14,070 nucleotides of DNA, from assembly GCA_046760705.1 (NCBI GenBank), contig JBHIER010000027.1, positions 1-14,070 of the forward strand, read 5' to 3'. Below the pieces are notes generated by a model. It made no database searches. It saw nothing but the letters and a program-made list of their open reading frames with translations, and was not told the DNA's origin. A program made the position numbers and the translations under genes. Each line of letters opens with the position of its first letter. Positions within the stretch are counted from its first letter, which is position 1. Source of the DNA: JBHIER01 sp046760705 [NCBI: bacterium] (lineage in GTDB: Bacteria; JBHIER01; G020348925). Shown here one piece after another: positions 1 to 12,831 of this stretch.

Positions 1-47
1 GAGGTGAATGTTCTGGACGTGGTGAATATAGTCAATGCCATTCTCGG
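1..47 (+). repeat. Dockerin-coding direct repeat, copy 1
   Basis: This 47-base stretch matches 338-384 at 40 positions. The seven differences (positions 9, 18, 27, 33, 36, 39, 42 of the repeat) all fall on third codon positions; six are silent and one changes Asn to Lys. This is the pattern of two paralogous protein domains kept by selection, not a recent DNA duplication. Confidence 0.75.
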
Positions 48-69
48 TTCACCTGTGTCGAGGCAGTAA
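1..69 (+). CDS. C-terminal end of a dockerin-domain protein (partial, 5' end outside window)
   Basis: Frame 1 reads EVNVLDVVNIVNAILG followed by SPVSRQ and a TAA stop at 67-69. The D-x-x-x-x-V-N-A-I-L spacing and the V-N-V-L-D start are those of a type I dockerin calcium-binding repeat, normally the last element of secreted or cell-surface proteins. Only 22 codons lie in the window, so the catalytic or binding part of the protein is unknown. The same motif recurs in the next fragment at 338-384. The assignment to a dockerin tail is by motif; that the gene is intact upstream is inference. Confidence 0.6.
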   Translation, partial: EVNVLDVVNIVNAILGSPVSRQ

Positions 70-481: not shown

Positions 482-1540
482 TCAGCGCGCTGGGAAAATC
501 AGAACTTCACCCTGGTGGCTACATTTCGGGCAGGAGAAACAGAGCACAGAGTCTTTTTCCCAGGGAGATACAGTCCGAGTAGTTGCGCGGCAACGCTGGC
601 AAACAAGGGGATCCATCGAGCGGGTTACAGGGTTATAGATGAGGCGGATTTCCCGTGAAAGCTTGCGGTATCGAATGGCAACTGTGAGCCGGATCACTGG
701 AACCAGAAATCGCAGGGCCGCGCAACCAGTCAGGGTAACCTGTGTCCGGTATTTTTGGTGAAGATCTTCGATCTTGCGGGACATTTCGTCTGGCAGTTCC
801 TGGATCTTGGCCTTTCTTTCGATTCGCTGCTCTTCGCTTAAATTGGGATTTTCCAGACTGGCTTCCATTTCCCTTTCTAAGGCCTGGTAATACTCCTGGG
901 TATTTCGAACATCACGGTTCAGATGTCGTCGGATGCTTTTGAAAAAATCGGCCAATTCCACGTCGATAAGAGTCCGGGCATTCTTCATGGCTGCGATGAT
1001 CGAATCATCTAAATGTATCGGAAAATGGGGGGGGACATTCTTCGGGGAGAAGAACTTTGGCTGAAAATCCGCCCAGCGTCCTGTCATTTCGGGAATCAAT
1101 GCGCCGGTATCTTCGTGTATAGCCACTTCAACCAGTCCTTCTTTTCGTTCGTCGCTCATAGCTATGTAGTGGCATATCAGCACCATATAACTATGTCGGG
1201 CTTCCACCGTACTGATGATGCGGCTTTGTCCTTTGCCAAAGGAAATATCTTGTGCAAGAAGTTGCTCGAACCCGGCCTTTTTCAAATAAGGCACCTGGAG
1301 CTCACCGTAAACTACCGGAACTTCCTGAGTGGCCAGGGAGACGAGGCGATCCAGGAGCGGGCTGCCATAGAGAAGAATTTCCCCATCTTTTCCTATTCGA
1401 ACCTCTTCAGGCAGCTCCAGTATTCGGGATATATGTCCTGGCAATAGAGCCATCATATGATCGGGATGCTGTTCAACCACGCCGCCTTGTTGTTCCAGCA
1501 ACTGAGCAGCAAAGGATAACAATTCCTGATCTGGACTCAT
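482..1540 (-). CDS. Zinc-ribbon protein, putative partner of the SNF2 ATPase (function unknown)
   Basis: 352 residues; I do not recognise a named family. Visible parts: a globular N-terminal half (about 1-190), a charged helical stretch rich in Glu, Arg and Lys (about 195-265) that looks coiled-coil forming, and a C-terminal zinc ribbon with C314-x2-C317 and C334-x2-C337-x2-C340. The absence of a signal peptide or membrane segment points to the cytoplasm. The ATG at 1538-1540 overlaps the TGA of the SNF2 gene (1537-1539) as ATGA, so translation is probably coupled and the two products likely act together. The C-terminal ribbon could contact nucleic acid or protein. The partnership with the helicase is inference from gene order; a role in repair, transcription recycling or phage defence cannot be chosen from sequence. 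Confidence 0.7.
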   Translation of the reverse strand: MSPDQELLSFAAQLLEQQGGVVEQHPDHMMALLPGHISRILELPEEVRIGKDGEILLYGSPLLDRLVSLATQEVPVVYGELQVPYLKKAGFEQLLAQDISFGKGQSRIISTVEARHSYMVLICHYIAMSDERKEGLVEVAIHEDTGALIPEMTGRWADFQPKFFSPKNVPPHFPIHLDDSIIAAMKNARTLIDVELADFFKSIRRHLNRDVRNTQEYYQALEREMEASLENPNLSEEQRIERKAKIQELPDEMSRKIEDLHQKYRTQVTLTGCAALRFLVPVIRLTVAIRYRKLSREIRLIYNPVTRSMDPLVCQRCRATTRTVSPWEKDSVLCFSCPKCSHQGEVLIFPAR

Positions 1541-3876
1541 ACGCCAAAATCCTCCTGAAAGAGCTTCTCATCCAATTCCTTGCTCTTCTCATAAGCCATC
1601 CTGGCTCGCTTCAATCGAGATGCCAGGGCGTTAAAAGCCTCTCTTCGTTTCGCCTCATCGCTGTTTTTGATCCAAATATCGTACACCAGTTCGCTGAATT
1701 CCTGCTCACCCTTCAGGCGCCCCAGAATCATATCTATTTCCCCCACTACAAGTTCGAACATATTGATTTTGCGATCCAGAACTTCCAGAATATGGTCTTC
1801 AAGACTACCCGCCGCACAAAAGTTATAAACCTGCACCTCCTTGTCTTGACCGATGCGATGGATACGGCCGATGCGCTGTTCAATTTGCATAGGATTCCAG
1901 GGCAGATCATAATTAATCATCGTATGGCAAAATTGCAAGTTATGTCCTTCGCCACCAGTTCCGGTAGCCAGAAGTACTGGGCAGCCCTTTCGGAATGTGT
2001 CGATAGCCGCCTGTTTTTGAGCTGTGGTCATACTACCCTGAAAAACGACGTGGGGAATTTTTTGCTCCTCCAGCACCCCTCGGAGGTATTCCAGTGTAGC
2101 CAGATAATTGACAAAAATTATTCTCTGATCGGACAGAGCGTGGAGGAGTTCCAACACTTGCTGAGTTTTAGCGCCTATTCGAATTTCTCTTCCCATGGCC
2201 AGAATCTCTTTGGCATACTTGCTGATCCCATTCTGGTTGCGTGCGGCGACATTTTCTAACACGCGTAAGGCTGCGATATGGGACGAGCCTGCTGCTTCCA
2301 GCAACTTCTGAAGAGCCATTCTGGTGAGACCATCCGATTGGAGCTTAGCTTGCTCAGCAATGAACTCGCTAATGGCTTGATAAAATGTTTCTTCAGGCTG
2401 CGAGGGGGATACCTTTACCGTGGTAGCGAATCTTGGGGGAAGATGCAGTTGCGTCACCGAACGCGTGTTTCGAAGCATAACCTCCTTAAGCAATTGTCTT
2501 AACTTCTCTCGGTTCTGGGGGTCGGTTGGATTCCCCCGGGTGACGAACTCCTCCTTAAAGGTTTTACGTGTTTTGAGGTGCCCGGGACTCAAGAGGGTAA
2601 CAAGGTTGTAGAGCTCTTCCAGATTATTTTGAACTGGAGTCGCTGTTAACAGAAGCAAGTAGGTTTTTGGTATAGCATTGACTAACTTCCAATTGAGGGT
2701 AGCTCGGTTTTTCAAATGGTGCGCTTCATCAACGATGATCATGTCGTAGCTACGGGAGGTGACGAAGTCAAAGTGGCGCTTACTCTTGGCCGTGTGGATA
2801 GAGGCCAGTACGAGTGGCGATTGCCAAAAACGCTCAGGGTCTTGACGGAAAAGCGGATCATTAGACGAAACAAAAGTAAGTTGAAACTTTTCTAAAAGTT
2901 CCTCCTGCCACTGATGGACAAGATTGCTTGGAGTGAGAATCAGGGCAGTGCGCACCAGTCCGCGCAATAGATATTCCTTCAGGACCATGCAAGCCTCGAT
3001 TGTTTTGCCAAGACCAACCTCGTCTGCCAGAATCGCCCGCCCGCGGAAGTACTTCATAACTTTGCGGGCCGTTTCCTCCTGATACCACAGGGATTGTACG
3101 TTTCGAATCACGGGCAAACAGAGCAACTGATCGTAAGAGGTGCGAAAGGAAAGTTTATATGCCTTTAAGGTCATCTCCAGGCTGGGCACATTCGCTCGGT
3201 GTAGCTTCTTTATCGCTGTTAGGATTGGCTCGGCATCCACCTCAAATGTTATCTTAGGTTTGAGGTGAATCTCTGCAGATGAATCCTCGATTTTTCTCTT
3301 CTCTTTCTCTTCTACTTGCGGAGTTTGGGGTTTTGCGGCTTCTTCTTTAGAACCGGGAGACGGTGCGGGGACAGAGCGTCTGGGTATTGGTTGGATAGCG
3401 TGCTCCAACATGTCGAGCCTCTTTAAGTACCGTTCCGCTTCCTTCAACTGGGTCTTGGTAAGGGGACTCTCCATTGGGACTGCTTCTGCCACCAATCCCT
3501 GAAACACCTCTTTGGCCAGCCTATAATCTTTTTGTGAGAAAGCCATTCTTCCAAGAAACAGGTAATCTTTTCTTAGACGCAAGGCTTCCTTCTCCCAACC
3601 CTGAAGGAGAAGGTTATAAATGGTTGCTTCTTTATTTAAAAGCGCTGCGCATTGAATCGCAATGTCTCTAATATGATCGTCCCTCGGATCAAGTCTCAGA
3701 GATTTAATGGCCCATTTTAAGGCCAACTCATAATTATTGTAGAAAAACGCCTCTTCGGCATTGTATGAGAAAAATCTTGACTTCCTATCCCTTTGATTCC
3801 TTTCCATCTGCATCCGACGAGCCTTACGCCTTTGGTCGCGCTTTCTCTTTTTCTTCTGGTGACGATCAATTTTCAT
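1537..3876 (-). CDS. SNF2-family DNA-dependent ATPase/helicase with N-terminal TPR-like region
   Basis: 779 residues from the ATG at 3874-3876. The SNF2 motifs are complete (this numbering): Walker A DEVGLGKT at 285-292, DEAH box at 383-386, TATP at 411-414, and the C-terminal RecA lobe with ATGTGGEGHNL and motif VI QRIGRIHRIGQ at 667-677. This is the RapA/HepA-like bacterial SNF2 architecture: ATP-driven translocation on double-stranded DNA. Residues 7-32 are very basic (KKKRKR, RRKARR) and about 34-130 are helical and TPR-like (repeated Y-x2-A-L-x-W-A and D-Y-x-L-A-K-x-V-F). A Glu/Pro/Lys linker at about 168-205 follows. I prefer this start because the 52 codons upstream, open to an ATG at 4032, encode transposase-derived sequence, and because GGAGGG lies 11 bases ahead. 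The 3' end overlaps the zinc-ribbon gene by 4 bases. The SNF2 assignment is firm; cellular role unknown. Confidence 0.88.
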   Translation of the reverse strand: MKIDRHQKKKRKRDQRRKARRMQMERNQRDRKSRFFSYNAEEAFFYNNYELALKWAIKSLRLDPRDDHIRDIAIQCAALLNKEATIYNLLLQGWEKEALRLRKDYLFLGRMAFSQKDYRLAKEVFQGLVAEAVPMESPLTKTQLKEAERYLKRLDMLEHAIQPIPRRSVPAPSPGSKEEAAKPQTPQVEEKEKRKIEDSSAEIHLKPKITFEVDAEPILTAIKKLHRANVPSLEMTLKAYKLSFRTSYDQLLCLPVIRNVQSLWYQEETARKVMKYFRGRAILADEVGLGKTIEACMVLKEYLLRGLVRTALILTPSNLVHQWQEELLEKFQLTFVSSNDPLFRQDPERFWQSPLVLASIHTAKSKRHFDFVTSRSYDMIIVDEAHHLKNRATLNWKLVNAIPKTYLLLLTATPVQNNLEELYNLVTLLSPGHLKTRKTFKEEFVTRGNPTDPQNREKLRQLLKEVMLRNTRSVTQLHLPPRFATTVKVSPSQPEETFYQAISEFIAEQAKLQSDGLTRMALQKLLEAAGSSHIAALRVLENVAARNQNGISKYAKEILAMGREIRIGAKTQQVLELLHALSDQRIIFVNYLATLEYLRGVLEEQKIPHVVFQGSMTTAQKQAAIDTFRKGCPVLLATGTGGEGHNLQFCHTMINYDLPWNPMQIEQRIGRIHRIGQDKEVQVYNFCAAGSLEDHILEVLDRKINMFELVVGEIDMILGRLKGEQEFSELVYDIWIKNSDEAKRREAFNALASRLKRARMAYEKSKELDEKLFQEDFGV

Positions 3877-4051
3877 TCGCGTCAGGGCCCTCCGCACAGG
3901 GTTCAGGTGAATGTCACGGCTCAATTCCCAATGATGGTCGACCAATGTGCCCTTGAAACGGCCCTGGGACCTGTCTGCGTCCCGAGGGCTTTCGGGGCAG
4001 GTAGACGTGGGATGTTCCATCCGGTATCTCAATTCGTAAAGGCCTGGCCAT
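3877..4051 (-). pseudogene. REP-associated tyrosine transposase (RAYT, Y1_Tnp) relic
   Basis: On the minus strand an ATG at 4049-4051 opens MARPLRIEIPDGTSHVYLPR, the characteristic N-terminus of RAYT/IS200-like transposases. Within about 30 bases the homology moves to another frame (that of the ATG at 4032) and reads GRFKGTLVDHHWELSRDIHL then NPVR. That matches the C-terminal family signature GRF/YK-x-x-L-V ... ELSRYIHLNPVR. About 90 codons of the middle, including the HUH metal-binding motif, are missing, so the relic is both deleted and frameshifted. The residue before IHLNPVR, normally the (probably catalytic) Tyr, is Asp here. The relic runs into the SNF2 start at 3876. It cannot encode an active enzyme. 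Confidence 0.8.
3883..3892 (-). promoter_or_regulatory. Ribosome binding site supporting the SNF2 start at 3876
   Basis: On the minus strand GGAGGG precedes the ATG at 3874-3876 by about 11 bases, a slightly long but usable spacing. The same bases encode the last codons of the transposase motif (NPVRRAL), so the site seems to have arisen inside transposase-derived sequence. Confidence 0.4.
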
Positions 4052-4058
4052 TTCCGAT

Positions 4059-4087
4059 AAAATAAGAAAACGAATCCAACCTGTCAA
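4059..4087 (-). promoter_or_regulatory. Predicted sigma-70-type promoter of the SNF2 operon
   Basis: Minus strand: consensus -35 TTGACA at 4087-4082, a 17-base spacer, and -10 TATTTT at 4064-4059 (four of six bases matching TATAAT). Transcription would begin near 4052, at the ATG of the transposase relic, giving a leader of about 175 bases before the SNF2 ATG. It may be the original transposase promoter now serving the helicase genes. No experimental support. Confidence 0.5.
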
Positions 4088-11450: not shown

Positions 11451-11774
11451 ATGAGCACAGTTGTCGCAACTGAACATCCGTACATTGTACAGATTGATGG
11501 GGTATGTGGTGGAAAGCCGATCATTAAGGGCACCCGGACTCCGATGAGGTCCATCGTTGGATATTACAAACTTGGGATGAGCATCGAGGAAATCATTGAG
11601 GGTTTACCCCATCTCACAGCAGCCCAAGTTCACGATGCCCTGAGCTACTATCATGACCACCGGGAAGAAATTGAGAAAGATATTGAGGAGAACAGAATCG
11701 AAAAATTGATGGAGAAATATGGCTTGAAAAGGGATGAGGAAGACAGGTTACCCTCTAAGGACAACAAGAAATGA
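11451..11774 (+). CDS. DUF433-domain protein, orphan VapB45-type antitoxin-like
   Basis: 107 residues. Residues about 9-73 match the DUF433 pattern closely: G21-K-P-I-I-K-G-T-R-T-P, the helix-turn-helix region SIVGYYKLGMSIEEII, then GLPHLTAAQVHDALSYYHDH. The tail after 73 is highly charged (Glu/Lys/Arg). DUF433 proteins are usually DNA-binding antitoxins paired with a PIN-like DUF5615 toxin; no toxin reading frame follows, so this copy is an orphan. A GAGGA 11 bases before the ATG is the ribosome site. It sits between nuoH and the prenyltransferase, separated by 47 and 136 bases, unlike the tight nuo junctions, and looks richer in A and T. It is probably an insertion; a role in controlling the operon is possible but unproven. 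Confidence 0.88.
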   Translation: MSTVVATEHPYIVQIDGVCGGKPIIKGTRTPMRSIVGYYKLGMSIEEIIEGLPHLTAAQVHDALSYYHDHREEIEKDIEENRIEKLMEKYGLKRDEEDRLPSKDNKK

Positions 11775-11880: not shown

Positions 11881-11910
11881 GAGAAGTAGAAGTTGAAAGG
11901 GCTTAACCAA

Positions 11911-12831
11911 ATGTTGGAGAAAATTAAACTTTGGTTGACGGAAATCCGGGCCCCTTTTCTGACTGCCAGCATCGTCCCCGTCCTTTTAGGGGCCGTCATC
12001 GCCTGGGTCGTCACGGGTTCCTTTCATTGGGGATTTTTTCTGTTGACCCTGGTGGCCGGGATCTGTCTCCACATCGGGACGAACGTGGCCAACGACTATT
12101 TCGACCACGTAAGCGGGAACGACGAGATCAACGTCGACTTCGTCCGGCCCTTCACCGGTGGAAGCAGAATGATCCAGAAGGGGCTGATGAGGCCGAAGGA
12201 GGTCCTGATTGAGTCGATACTCTTTTTCACCATAGGATGCATCATCGGCCTCTATCTGGCCTGGACGAGGGGGCCGATCATCCTTCTGCTCGGTCTGATC
12301 GGGGTCTTCTCCGGTTTCTTCTACACCGCGCCCCCCTTTCGTCTGGCCAATCTGGGGATCGGTGAAGCGGTGGTGGGGGTCAACTTCGGGGTACTCATGG
12401 TCGTCGGATCGTACTACGTGCAGACGGGGAAGCTGAGTTGGGCGGCGGCGGCGGCCGGATTGCCCGTCTCATTCCTCATTGCGGCCGTGCTCTACATCAA
12501 CGAGTTCCCCGATTATGCAGCCGATAAGGCCGTGGGGAAGAACCATCTCGTGGTCAGATGGGGAAAAGAGAGGGCGGTTGTGGGCTACATGGTGATCTTG
12601 GCTTTAGCTTACGCCTCGGTCATTCTTGGGGTGGCTGTAAAGGCAATCACGCCGTACGCCCTCATCGCCCTGCTGACCGTACCATTGGCCATAAAAGCGT
12701 ATCGGAATGCAAAGATGTATCATAATAACAGCCGCAAACTCGTTCCATCCAACGCAGCCACAATCATGATTCATCTCTCCGTCGGCCTGCTCATGTGTGT
12801 GGGCTATGTTTTAGAAAGGGTGATGAGTTGA
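11911..12831 (+). CDS. menA: MenA/UbiA-family polyprenyltransferase, likely 1,4-dihydroxy-2-naphthoate prenyltransferase
   Basis: 306 residues from ATG 11911, the size of MenA, with about eight to nine membrane segments. UbiA-family Asp-rich motifs are present: NVANDYFDHVSGNDE at 58-72 (D62, D65, D71) and NEFPDYAADKAVGK at 197-210 (D201, D205), followed by NHLVVRWG, which resembles the MenA end of this motif (GKNTLVVRLG). RPFTGGSRMIQKGLM at 79-93 is also MenA-like. The enzyme would attach a polyprenyl chain to dihydroxynaphthoate in the membrane, giving demethylmenaquinone, the precursor of the quinone complex I reduces. GAAAGG lies 10 bases before the ATG; a TTG at 11893 would add six residues. 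The 3' end overlaps nuoI by four bases, so it is a true member of the operon. The exact acceptor is inferred from the motif and context; other UbiA enzymes are possible. Confidence 0.8.
   Translation: MLEKIKLWLTEIRAPFLTASIVPVLLGAVIAWVVTGSFHWGFFLLTLVAGICLHIGTNVANDYFDHVSGNDEINVDFVRPFTGGSRMIQKGLMRPKEVLIESILFFTIGCIIGLYLAWTRGPIILLLGLIGVFSGFFYTAPPFRLANLGIGEAVVGVNFGVLMVVGSYYVQTGKLSWAAAAAGLPVSFLIAAVLYINEFPDYAADKAVGKNHLVVRWGKERAVVGYMVILALAYASVILGVAVKAITPYALIALLTVPLAIKAYRNAKMYHNNSRKLVPSNAATIMIHLSVGLLMCVGYVLERVMS

What the first reader, a model, noticed from the sequence alone, without database searches (positions are those of the whole stretch)
482..3876. Two-gene SNF2 ATPase plus zinc-ribbon protein module of unknown function
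A complete SNF2 motor with a basic TPR-like N-terminus is coupled by an ATGA overlap to a 352-residue protein with a coiled-coil-like centre and a CxxC/CxxC ribbon that I cannot place in a family. Single SNF2 genes are common, but a strictly coupled partner suggests a dedicated complex. It is beside mobile-element debris, as defence genes often are. None of the hallmark proteins of DISARM, BREX or Dpd are visible, so if it is defence it would be a new or minimal type.
Basis: inference. Interest (0 to 1): 0.6.

Follow-up and report, generated by a model that had tools for sequence, protein, structure and literature searches.

The report
Split two-gene RapA/BrxHII-type SNF2 motor
Two adjacent genes, nearly always found together, appear to encode a DNA-tracking motor and, as a separate protein, the tail that related motors of bacterial immunity and RNA-polymerase recycling carry on one chain; what the pair does is unknown.

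Summary
In detail: a complete SNF2 ATPase (779 aa) overlaps by ATGA a 352-aa protein ending in a CxxC/CxxC ribbon. The "unplaceable" partner can be placed. Profile comparison links it to the C-terminal module of single-chain defence SNF2 proteins (HmaA/BrxHII type; 89-97%, column-permuted controls at most 0.6%; the bacterial N-terminal half alone is weak, 6.4%). That module is itself related to RapA_C. The pair is best read as a RapA/BrxHII-type remodeller split into two genes.

Coupling is real: 11 of 11 bacterial loci, 6 of 6 plasmids, 10 of 10 fetched haloarchaeal loci; 24 of 25 motor-bearing genomes in one phylum sample also hold the partner. Presence is patchy (30 of 395).

Defence is only partly supported. 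Neighbours of chromosomal bacterial loci look like controls. In haloarchaea 7 of 10 pairs have DUF1156 methylase genes within 9-12 kb (5 also DUF499), with no other SNF2 motor found, so they may be the helicase of an Hma/BREX-related system. The window's branch has neither.

My searches found no description of the split form: a new variant of a known kind. Complex formation, substrate and function are untested.

The parts
482..1540 (-). Partner gene, 352 aa: free-standing C-terminal module of a RapA/BrxHII-type SNF2 protein
   Evidence: ORF; family in bacteria, plasmids and haloarchaea; profile match to single-chain SNF2 C-termini
1316..1540 (-). Partner residues 1-75: alpha+beta N-terminal domain, the part that aligns with the first C-terminal domain of HmaA/BrxHII (called an inactive REase in PMC12839542)
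   Evidence: pLDDT block means 69-91 over residues 1-70; hhalign of N-terminal halves: haloarchaeal 95.0%, joint 74.0%, bacterial alone 6.4%
752..1012 (-). Partner residues 177-263: long helices, coiled-coil-like
   Evidence: AlphaFold model; alignment A1
521..601 (-). Zinc-ribbon cysteines C314/C317 ... C337/C340
   Evidence: invariant in 11 of 11 rows of A1; C314 in 40 of 41, C317 in 35 of 41, C337 and C340 in 34 of 40 rows of the wide alignment; no C-terminal CxxC in the 5 cyanobacterial plasmid members
1537..3876 (-). SNF2 ATPase gene, 779 aa
   Evidence: stop codon overlaps the partner start as ATGA
3382..3876 (-). SNF2 residues 1-165: basic helix plus TPR-like array, found in the nearer bacterial relatives; the plasmid and haloarchaeal motors read are only 522-595 aa and lack it
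1741..3084 (-). SNF2 motor, residues 265-712, catalytic motifs intact
4059..4087 (-). Best promoter-like match upstream of the pair (TTGACA-17-TATTTT); consensus scan only, weak evidence
   Evidence: 8 sites in 5 kb against a shuffled mean of 3.7

Best explanation
The two genes encode a RapA/BrxHII-type Swi2/Snf2 remodeller whose chain is split in two. The first gene gives the ATP-driven motor, with a basic TPR N-terminus in this lineage. The second gives, in trans, the C-terminal module that RapA, BrxHII and HmaA carry on the same chain: an alpha+beta domain, then a sheet with two long helices, here ended by a zinc ribbon. SHOWN: motor motifs, coupling, co-inheritance, remote homology of the partner to single-chain C-terminal modules, and grouping of the split motors with weak to moderate support. 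INFERRED: that the two proteins bind each other, that the motor tracks on double-stranded DNA, and that the partner positions it on a target. Most likely work: an accessory machine that remodels or displaces protein on DNA. In one haloarchaeal branch it probably serves as the helicase of an Hma/BREX-related restriction-like locus; in the window's branch it works alone, either as a minimal genome-conflict system or as a remodeller of stalled RNA polymerase. I lean to the first and cannot decide. The first two rivals below are these two functional readings, not alternatives to the split.
For: Coupling; together. Bacterial and haloarchaeal partner profiles align over 332 columns at 98.6% (33 bacterial and 8 haloarchaeal rows, two of the latter cut to 400 and 420 aa). 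Partner against C-termini of single-chain SNF2 proteins (35 rows, some near-duplicate): bacterial 88.7%, haloarchaeal 96.9%, joint 96.6%; 60 column permutations of the template per profile reached at most 0.6%. The same C-termini against RapA_C: 95.0% with three RapA rows, 83.2% with the E. coli RapA C-terminus and 70.7% with whole E. coli RapA. Motor tree: split motors on one side of a branch (89/56), bacterial plus plasmid 99/99, haloarchaeal 100/100. Partner and motor identities correlate, r=0.92 over 32 pairs, 0 of 999 permutations as high. The published description of the BrxHII/RapA C-terminus (PMC12839542 passages) fits the order of elements in the partner model loosely. In the haloarchaeal stretches the split motor is the only match of the A2 profile at 1e-8.
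Against: The partner matches RapA_C directly at only 1.0-2.5%, so the RapA link goes by way of HmaA/BrxHII. The bacterial N-terminal half alone gives 6.4%, and the helical plus C-terminal halves alone 10.0% (bacterial), 8.6% (haloarchaeal) and 62.5% (joint). Adding three RapA rows to the template lowered the bacterial score to 57.6%. The reversed template still gave 23.9% for the whole haloarchaeal profile. Two DrmD-type C-termini gave 0.3% with the bacterial and 40.4% with the haloarchaeal profile. The partner model is below pLDDT 50 over much of residues 73-181 and gave no useful fold match. Support for grouping the split motors is 89/56, below the tool's own mark. No physical interaction was tested.
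Confidence: 0.62

Rival explanations
1. Functional reading 1, stand-alone minimal anti-phage or anti-plasmid system: the motor scans DNA and the partner senses or blocks foreign nucleoprotein, with no methylase or nuclease needed.
For: Kinship to defence SNF2 families: DrmD 9.2e-75, BrxH 6.2e-71, HmaA 9e-51. Patchy distribution. Carriage on 6 plasmids, in some beside toxin-antitoxin or partition genes. Haloarchaeal kin near DUF1156/DUF499 genes.
Against: No nuclease motif: in the first half of the partner only E23 and D130 are about 90% acidic over 41 rows. No clear defence enrichment round the chromosomal loci. No partner relative found in viral contigs or phage records. No activity data.
Confidence: 0.4
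2. Functional reading 2, a RapA-like RNA-polymerase recycling or anti-stalling factor: motor plus partner act on stalled polymerase, the TPR/basic N-terminus replacing RapA's Tudor pair.
For: Single-chain C-terminal modules are related to RapA_C. RapA gives the best PDB sequence hits of the motor, 7.3e-38. The pair is solitary in varied neighbourhoods, as a general factor could be. RapA_C above its cut-off was found in only 2 of 198 genomes of that phylum.
Against: Patchy presence and several interrupted copies (assembly errors not excluded) do not suit a core factor. No Tudor_RapA or RapA_C match in the window proteins. Most fetched haloarchaeal members lie near methylase genes.
Confidence: 0.25
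3. The partner is an unrelated gene that happens to follow SNF2.
For: Neighbouring genes in the window are respiratory, not mobile or defence (by inspection).
Against: Recurrent adjacency in the loci read, congruent divergence r=0.92, profile homology to SNF2 C-termini.
Confidence: 0.03
4. The pair is a DISARM DrmD or BrxHII gene broken by a stop codon or a frameshift.
For: In G337 the two open frames lie in one frame with a single stop between them (L039).
Against: Elsewhere the genes overlap by 4, 8 or more bases or are separated by 2 to 57 bases; split motors group together; DrmD score 252 bits against a cut-off of 950.
Confidence: 0.03

Closest known systems
[quoted passage not shown] passages and sections 29-31 seen)
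   Same: SNF2 motor followed by two alpha+beta domains, the second with two long helices between strands; remote homology of the partner to such C-termini
   Different: There one chain with a Tudor N-terminus; here two genes, TPR/basic N-terminus, zinc ribbon, no BREX genes found beside it
Hma / DUF499-centred BREX-related systems (HmaA helicase, HmaB DUF1156 methylase, HmaC DUF499 ATPase)
   Same: Most fetched haloarchaeal relatives lie near DUF1156 and some near DUF499 genes, with no other SNF2 match in the stretch
   Different: Helicase split in two genes; no NOV_C domain matched in the L052 and L054 partners, whereas the HmaA of G039 has one (L066); the window branch lacks methylase and ATPase
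RapA, RNA-polymerase recycling ATPase of E. coli
   Same: SNF2 motor plus a C-terminal module related to the partner by way of HmaA/BrxHII
   Different: Single chain, tandem Tudor N-terminus; no direct RapA_C match of the partner
DISARM DrmD
   Same: Best PADLOC family of the motor, 9.2e-75
   Different: Single chain; no DrmA/B/C seen near; far below the NCBIfam cut-off; C-terminus matches the bacterial partner at 0.3%

Membership tests
Swi2/Snf2 ATPases | SNF2-rel_dom plus Helicase_C with intact motifs | tested here: met
RapA | Tandem RapA Tudor domains at the N-terminus | tested here: not met
   No Tudor_RapA at E up to 1, while E. coli RapA gives both; TPR-like array instead
RapA | RapA_C domain (PF12137) | tested here: not met
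   No match for either window protein; partner profiles against three RapA rows 1.0-2.5%; only transitive by way of HmaA/BrxHII C-termini (95.0%)
RapA | Binds and is activated by RNA polymerase | not testable with these tools
   biochemistry needed
BREX type 3 (BrxHII) | BrxC, PglZ and methylase in the same locus | tested here: not met
   Other window genes are nuo-type, DUF433 and UbiA-like (by inspection); no Brx family among 116 neighbour ORFs of 25 bacterial loci at 1e-15
Hma / BREX-related | DUF1156 methylase and DUF499 ATPase next to the helicase | tested here: not met
   Not in the window and not among 116 neighbour ORFs. In haloarchaea: annotated DUF1156 in 7 of 10 and DUF499 in 5 of 10 fetched stretches
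DISARM (DrmD) | Score above the DrmD cut-off and DrmA/B/C present | tested here: not met
   252 bits against 950; none seen in the window by inspection
Split RapA/BrxHII-type pair (proposed here) | Partner homologous to the C-terminal module and coupled behind the motor | tested here: met
   the bacterial N-terminal half alone is weak (6.4%)
Split RapA/BrxHII-type pair (proposed here) | Motor and partner form one complex | not testable with these tools
   No complex prediction offered; r=0.92 of identities is compatible but no proof

The most novel reading that the evidence does not exclude
An old, widely scattered lineage of two-protein RapA-like remodellers acts as a complete stand-alone conflict system: the motor is armed in trans by an exchangeable sensor subunit (zinc ribbon; cyanobacterial form without CxxC; long zinc-finger arrays in some haloarchaea) that decides which nucleoprotein is stripped, without methylase or nuclease, and it was re-used as the helicase of BREX-related loci in other haloarchaea.
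Probability: 0.25. Interest if true: 0.75.

Novelty: new variant of a known kind. Interest (0 to 1): 0.5.

Why it matters
The role of the C-terminal module of RapA, BrxHII and HmaA is hard to study while it is fused to the motor. A natural split would let motor and module be made, mixed and assayed apart, and swapped between branches with different tails. It also ties defence helicases to an orphan branch whose second subunit has no model above cut-off in Pfam or NCBIfam and only an E of 0.0088 in PADLOC.

Tried and rejected
Partner as a piece of DISARM DrmD: the first hint (PADLOC 0.0088, NCBIfam 0.024) covered the helical segment only, and two DrmD-type C-termini scored 0.3% with the bacterial profile and 40.4% with the haloarchaeal one, so I do not claim DrmD.

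Single sequences as templates gave 0.1-43.9%; only multi-sequence profiles brought the signal out, and scores move with their make-up: 51-95% for the small non-DrmD sets, 84.4-97.4% for 37 or 35 rows, 88.7-96.9% after sparse columns were removed. The 35 rows hold near-duplicates, because some genes came in through both family searches; hhalign kept 31.

Fold search with the partner model: no match at E<=0.001. PDB sequence search with the partner profile: best E 0.34. The N-terminal half of the partner as an active nuclease: no conserved D-ExK pattern.

Viral carriage: no partner relative; the 80 motor hits listed of 331 in viral contigs are 23-43% identical. A fused motor-partner frame was not seen in the loci I read, but I did not search for one systematically.

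Neighbour comparison: A4 holds 116 of the 190 neighbour ORFs listed, from 25 loci, and A5 115 of the 170 control ORFs; I picked them by hand to stay under the residue limit. L107 fell out because my ORF caller lost the pair there, and L126 (a fragment locus) was left out. The controls come from long contigs only. Matches at 1e-15: 15 families in A4, 7 in A5. Only in A4: PDC-S01 models (up to two ORFs), PDC-M45C, PDC-M19A, RT-Protease_XI (one ORF each). Only in A5: RTasRmuC, HEase (one ORF each). The rest are shared. The tally does not show how many distinct ORFs matched.

Other rows dropped: L002 and L009 from the motor alignment, L009 from the partner alignment, stop-bearing or fragmentary copies (L023, L024, L026, L035-L043) from the wide partner profile. 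Of the loci offered to the motor tree, L220, L222 and E. coli RapA gave no row; L010's second, unrelated SNF2 protein stood in the tree but not in the mirror-tree count. Ten of 17 haloarchaeal records in rows H13-H29 were fetched; one search listed 60 of 430 records in all.
Full report
WHAT IS THERE. The window holds on the plus strand a respiratory complex I cluster (nuoE to nuoJ, by inspection) with a DUF433 gene and a UbiA-like gene (by inspection) inside it. On the minus strand, 482-3876, lie the two genes of the finding. The start at 3876 is preferred over the TTG at 4032 because 6 of 7 aligned relatives have the same basic run there.

THE PAIR RECURS. A scan of public genomes with the partner gave 11 loci: Deltaproteobacteria, Desulfoferrobacter suflitae, Syntrophobacteraceae (two loci of one MAG), one labelled KSB1 and one Saganbacteria. 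In 11 of 11 an SNF2 gene lies directly upstream; 6 overlap by 4 bases, 4 are 2 bases apart, and L010 overlaps by 23. Genome surveys found the partner in 30 of 395 genomes sampled from the phylum of Desulfoferrobacter, 6 of 82 of the phylum of the KSB1-labelled genome and 2 of 74 of that of the Saganbacteria genome. The converse search with the motor at 1e-110 found 25 of 395, of which 24 also hold the partner; the exception, G029, is a stop-bearing fragment. The six partner-bearing genomes without a motor at that cut-off hold only partial partner matches. Six plasmids carry the pair, five cyanobacterial and one alphaproteobacterial, adjacent in 6 of 6. Phage records and viral contigs gave no partner.

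ARCHAEA. Seventeen haloarchaeal plasmid records (rows H13-H29 of 60 listed, 430 in all) carry motors 32-37% identical to the window's. I fetched 10. A partner follows in 10 of 10, including two where annotation misses it wholly (L053) or in its first part (L063). Bacterial and haloarchaeal partner profiles align over 332 columns at 98.6%. Two forms exist: about 390 residues, and a longer form with zinc-finger-like arrays (676 aa in L054, 1095 aa in L058, and L053). Annotated DUF1156 methylase genes lie in the fetched stretch in 7 of 10, DUF499 ATPase genes in 5 of 10; the three with neither are the zinc-finger form, which also group in the motor tree. No second motor matched the A2 profile at 1e-8 in these stretches, nor in two further 20-22 kb stretches upstream. 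Several of these plasmids share their layout, so the 7 are not 7 independent events, and I ran no control for chance proximity.

WHAT THE PARTNER IS. No Pfam or NCBIfam model matches above cut-off and PADLOC gives only DrmD at 0.0088. I collected C-termini of single-chain SNF2 proteins found with the HmaA and BrxH models and on plasmids. Profile comparison with 35 of these (31 after redundancy filtering) gave 88.7% (bacterial partner), 96.9% (haloarchaeal) and 96.6% (joint). Sixty column permutations per profile reached at most 0.6%; reversed templates gave 0.0-0.4%, except 23.9% for the whole haloarchaeal profile. N-terminal halves alone gave 95.0% (haloarchaeal), 74.0% (joint) and 6.4% (bacterial); helical plus C-terminal halves alone 8.6%, 62.5% and 10.0%. 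A landmark of the alignment is GGVVE ... YGSPLLDRL in the window partner and GGKVY ... PGHPLLDA in the HmaA of L066. The same C-termini match RapA_C at 95.0% with three RapA rows, whereas the partner matches it directly at only 1.0-2.5%. These are one-against-one comparisons, not database searches, so the probabilities are best read beside the permutations.

LITERATURE. A 2026 paper (PMC12839542; [quoted passage not shown] and DUF499-centred BREX-related systems, also called Hma, with a helicase of that build. The word 'split' does not occur in its main text. Seen in passages only: the PADLOC paper that names Hma (PMC8565338), the YprA helicase preprint (PMC12458937) and the RapA-RNA polymerase paper (PMC8501970). 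Searches, seen as listings, showed no description of a split form; most subscription journals lie outside this library.

EVOLUTION. In a motor tree of 80 rows the split motors lie on one side of a branch (support 89/56) and the single-chain ones on the other (80/33), apart from the unrelated second SNF2 protein of L010; bacterial plus plasmid split motors form one group (99/99), haloarchaeal ones another (100/100). Partner and motor identities correlate at r=0.92 over 32 pairs, 0 of 999 permutations as high. The split looks old and inherited as a unit, but its single origin has only weak to moderate support.

CONTEXT IN THE WINDOW'S BRANCH. Neighbours are metabolic or diverse. PADLOC matches at 1e-15 among 116 neighbour ORFs of 25 loci (15 families) and 115 control ORFs (7 families) are few and largely of the same generic kind; the neighbour-only matches, chiefly PDC-S01 models on up to two ORFs, are listed under Tried and rejected. 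This does not support a defence-island setting, within a rough, hand-picked comparison. Nor is the pair housekeeping: it is rare, its surroundings differ, and several copies carry stops (G354, G262, G284, G114; G398, G029), though assembly errors are not excluded.

MECHANISM. Shown: complete motor, coupling, remote homology. Inferred from the families: the motor translocates on double-stranded DNA; the partner docks on it as the C-terminal module does in RapA; the zinc ribbon and the TPR/basic N-terminus choose the target. No nuclease pattern is conserved in the partner's first half over 41 aligned rows, in line with the 'inactive REase' reading. Whether the target is phage or plasmid nucleoprotein or stalled RNA polymerase is open; I lean to a genome-conflict role because of kinship, patchiness, plasmid carriage and the haloarchaeal methylase loci.

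Noticed in passing
window 11451-11774 and 11893-12831: A DUF433 gene and a UbiA-like gene (by inspection) lie between the nuoH- and nuoI-like genes, interrupting the complex I cluster.
   Followed up: partly
window 1-48 and about 338-386: Two similar stretches (by eye), the second reading VNVLDVVKIVNAILG, dockerin-like; Pfam Dockerin_1 only at E 0.027 for the ORF 35-658. Perhaps a broken or repeated dockerin-type gene end.
   Followed up: no
window 3877-4032: Open extension upstream of the SNF2 ATG with the string HLNPVR, recalled from REP-associated transposases; no Pfam match; a text search for that string in the loci held hit only the window.
   Followed up: partly
L010:614-6760: In the Saganbacteria locus the pair is followed by a second SNF2 protein of another kind (DUF3670, ZorD/DpdE-like) and a 247-aa protein without a family match in PADLOC or Pfam.
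   Followed up: partly
L054:13816-15846, L058:10740-14027, L053 from about 13800: Haloarchaeal partners with long arrays of zinc-finger-like repeats; in L053 the partner is not annotated.
   Followed up: partly
L006 and L009: One genome (G006) holds two copies of the pair, one with a frameshifted partner.
   Followed up: no
L056:9839-14475: A DrmD-like SNF2 gene overlaps an AIPR-family gene on a Deinococcus plasmid, followed by a VapC toxin gene and a methyltransferase gene.
   Followed up: no
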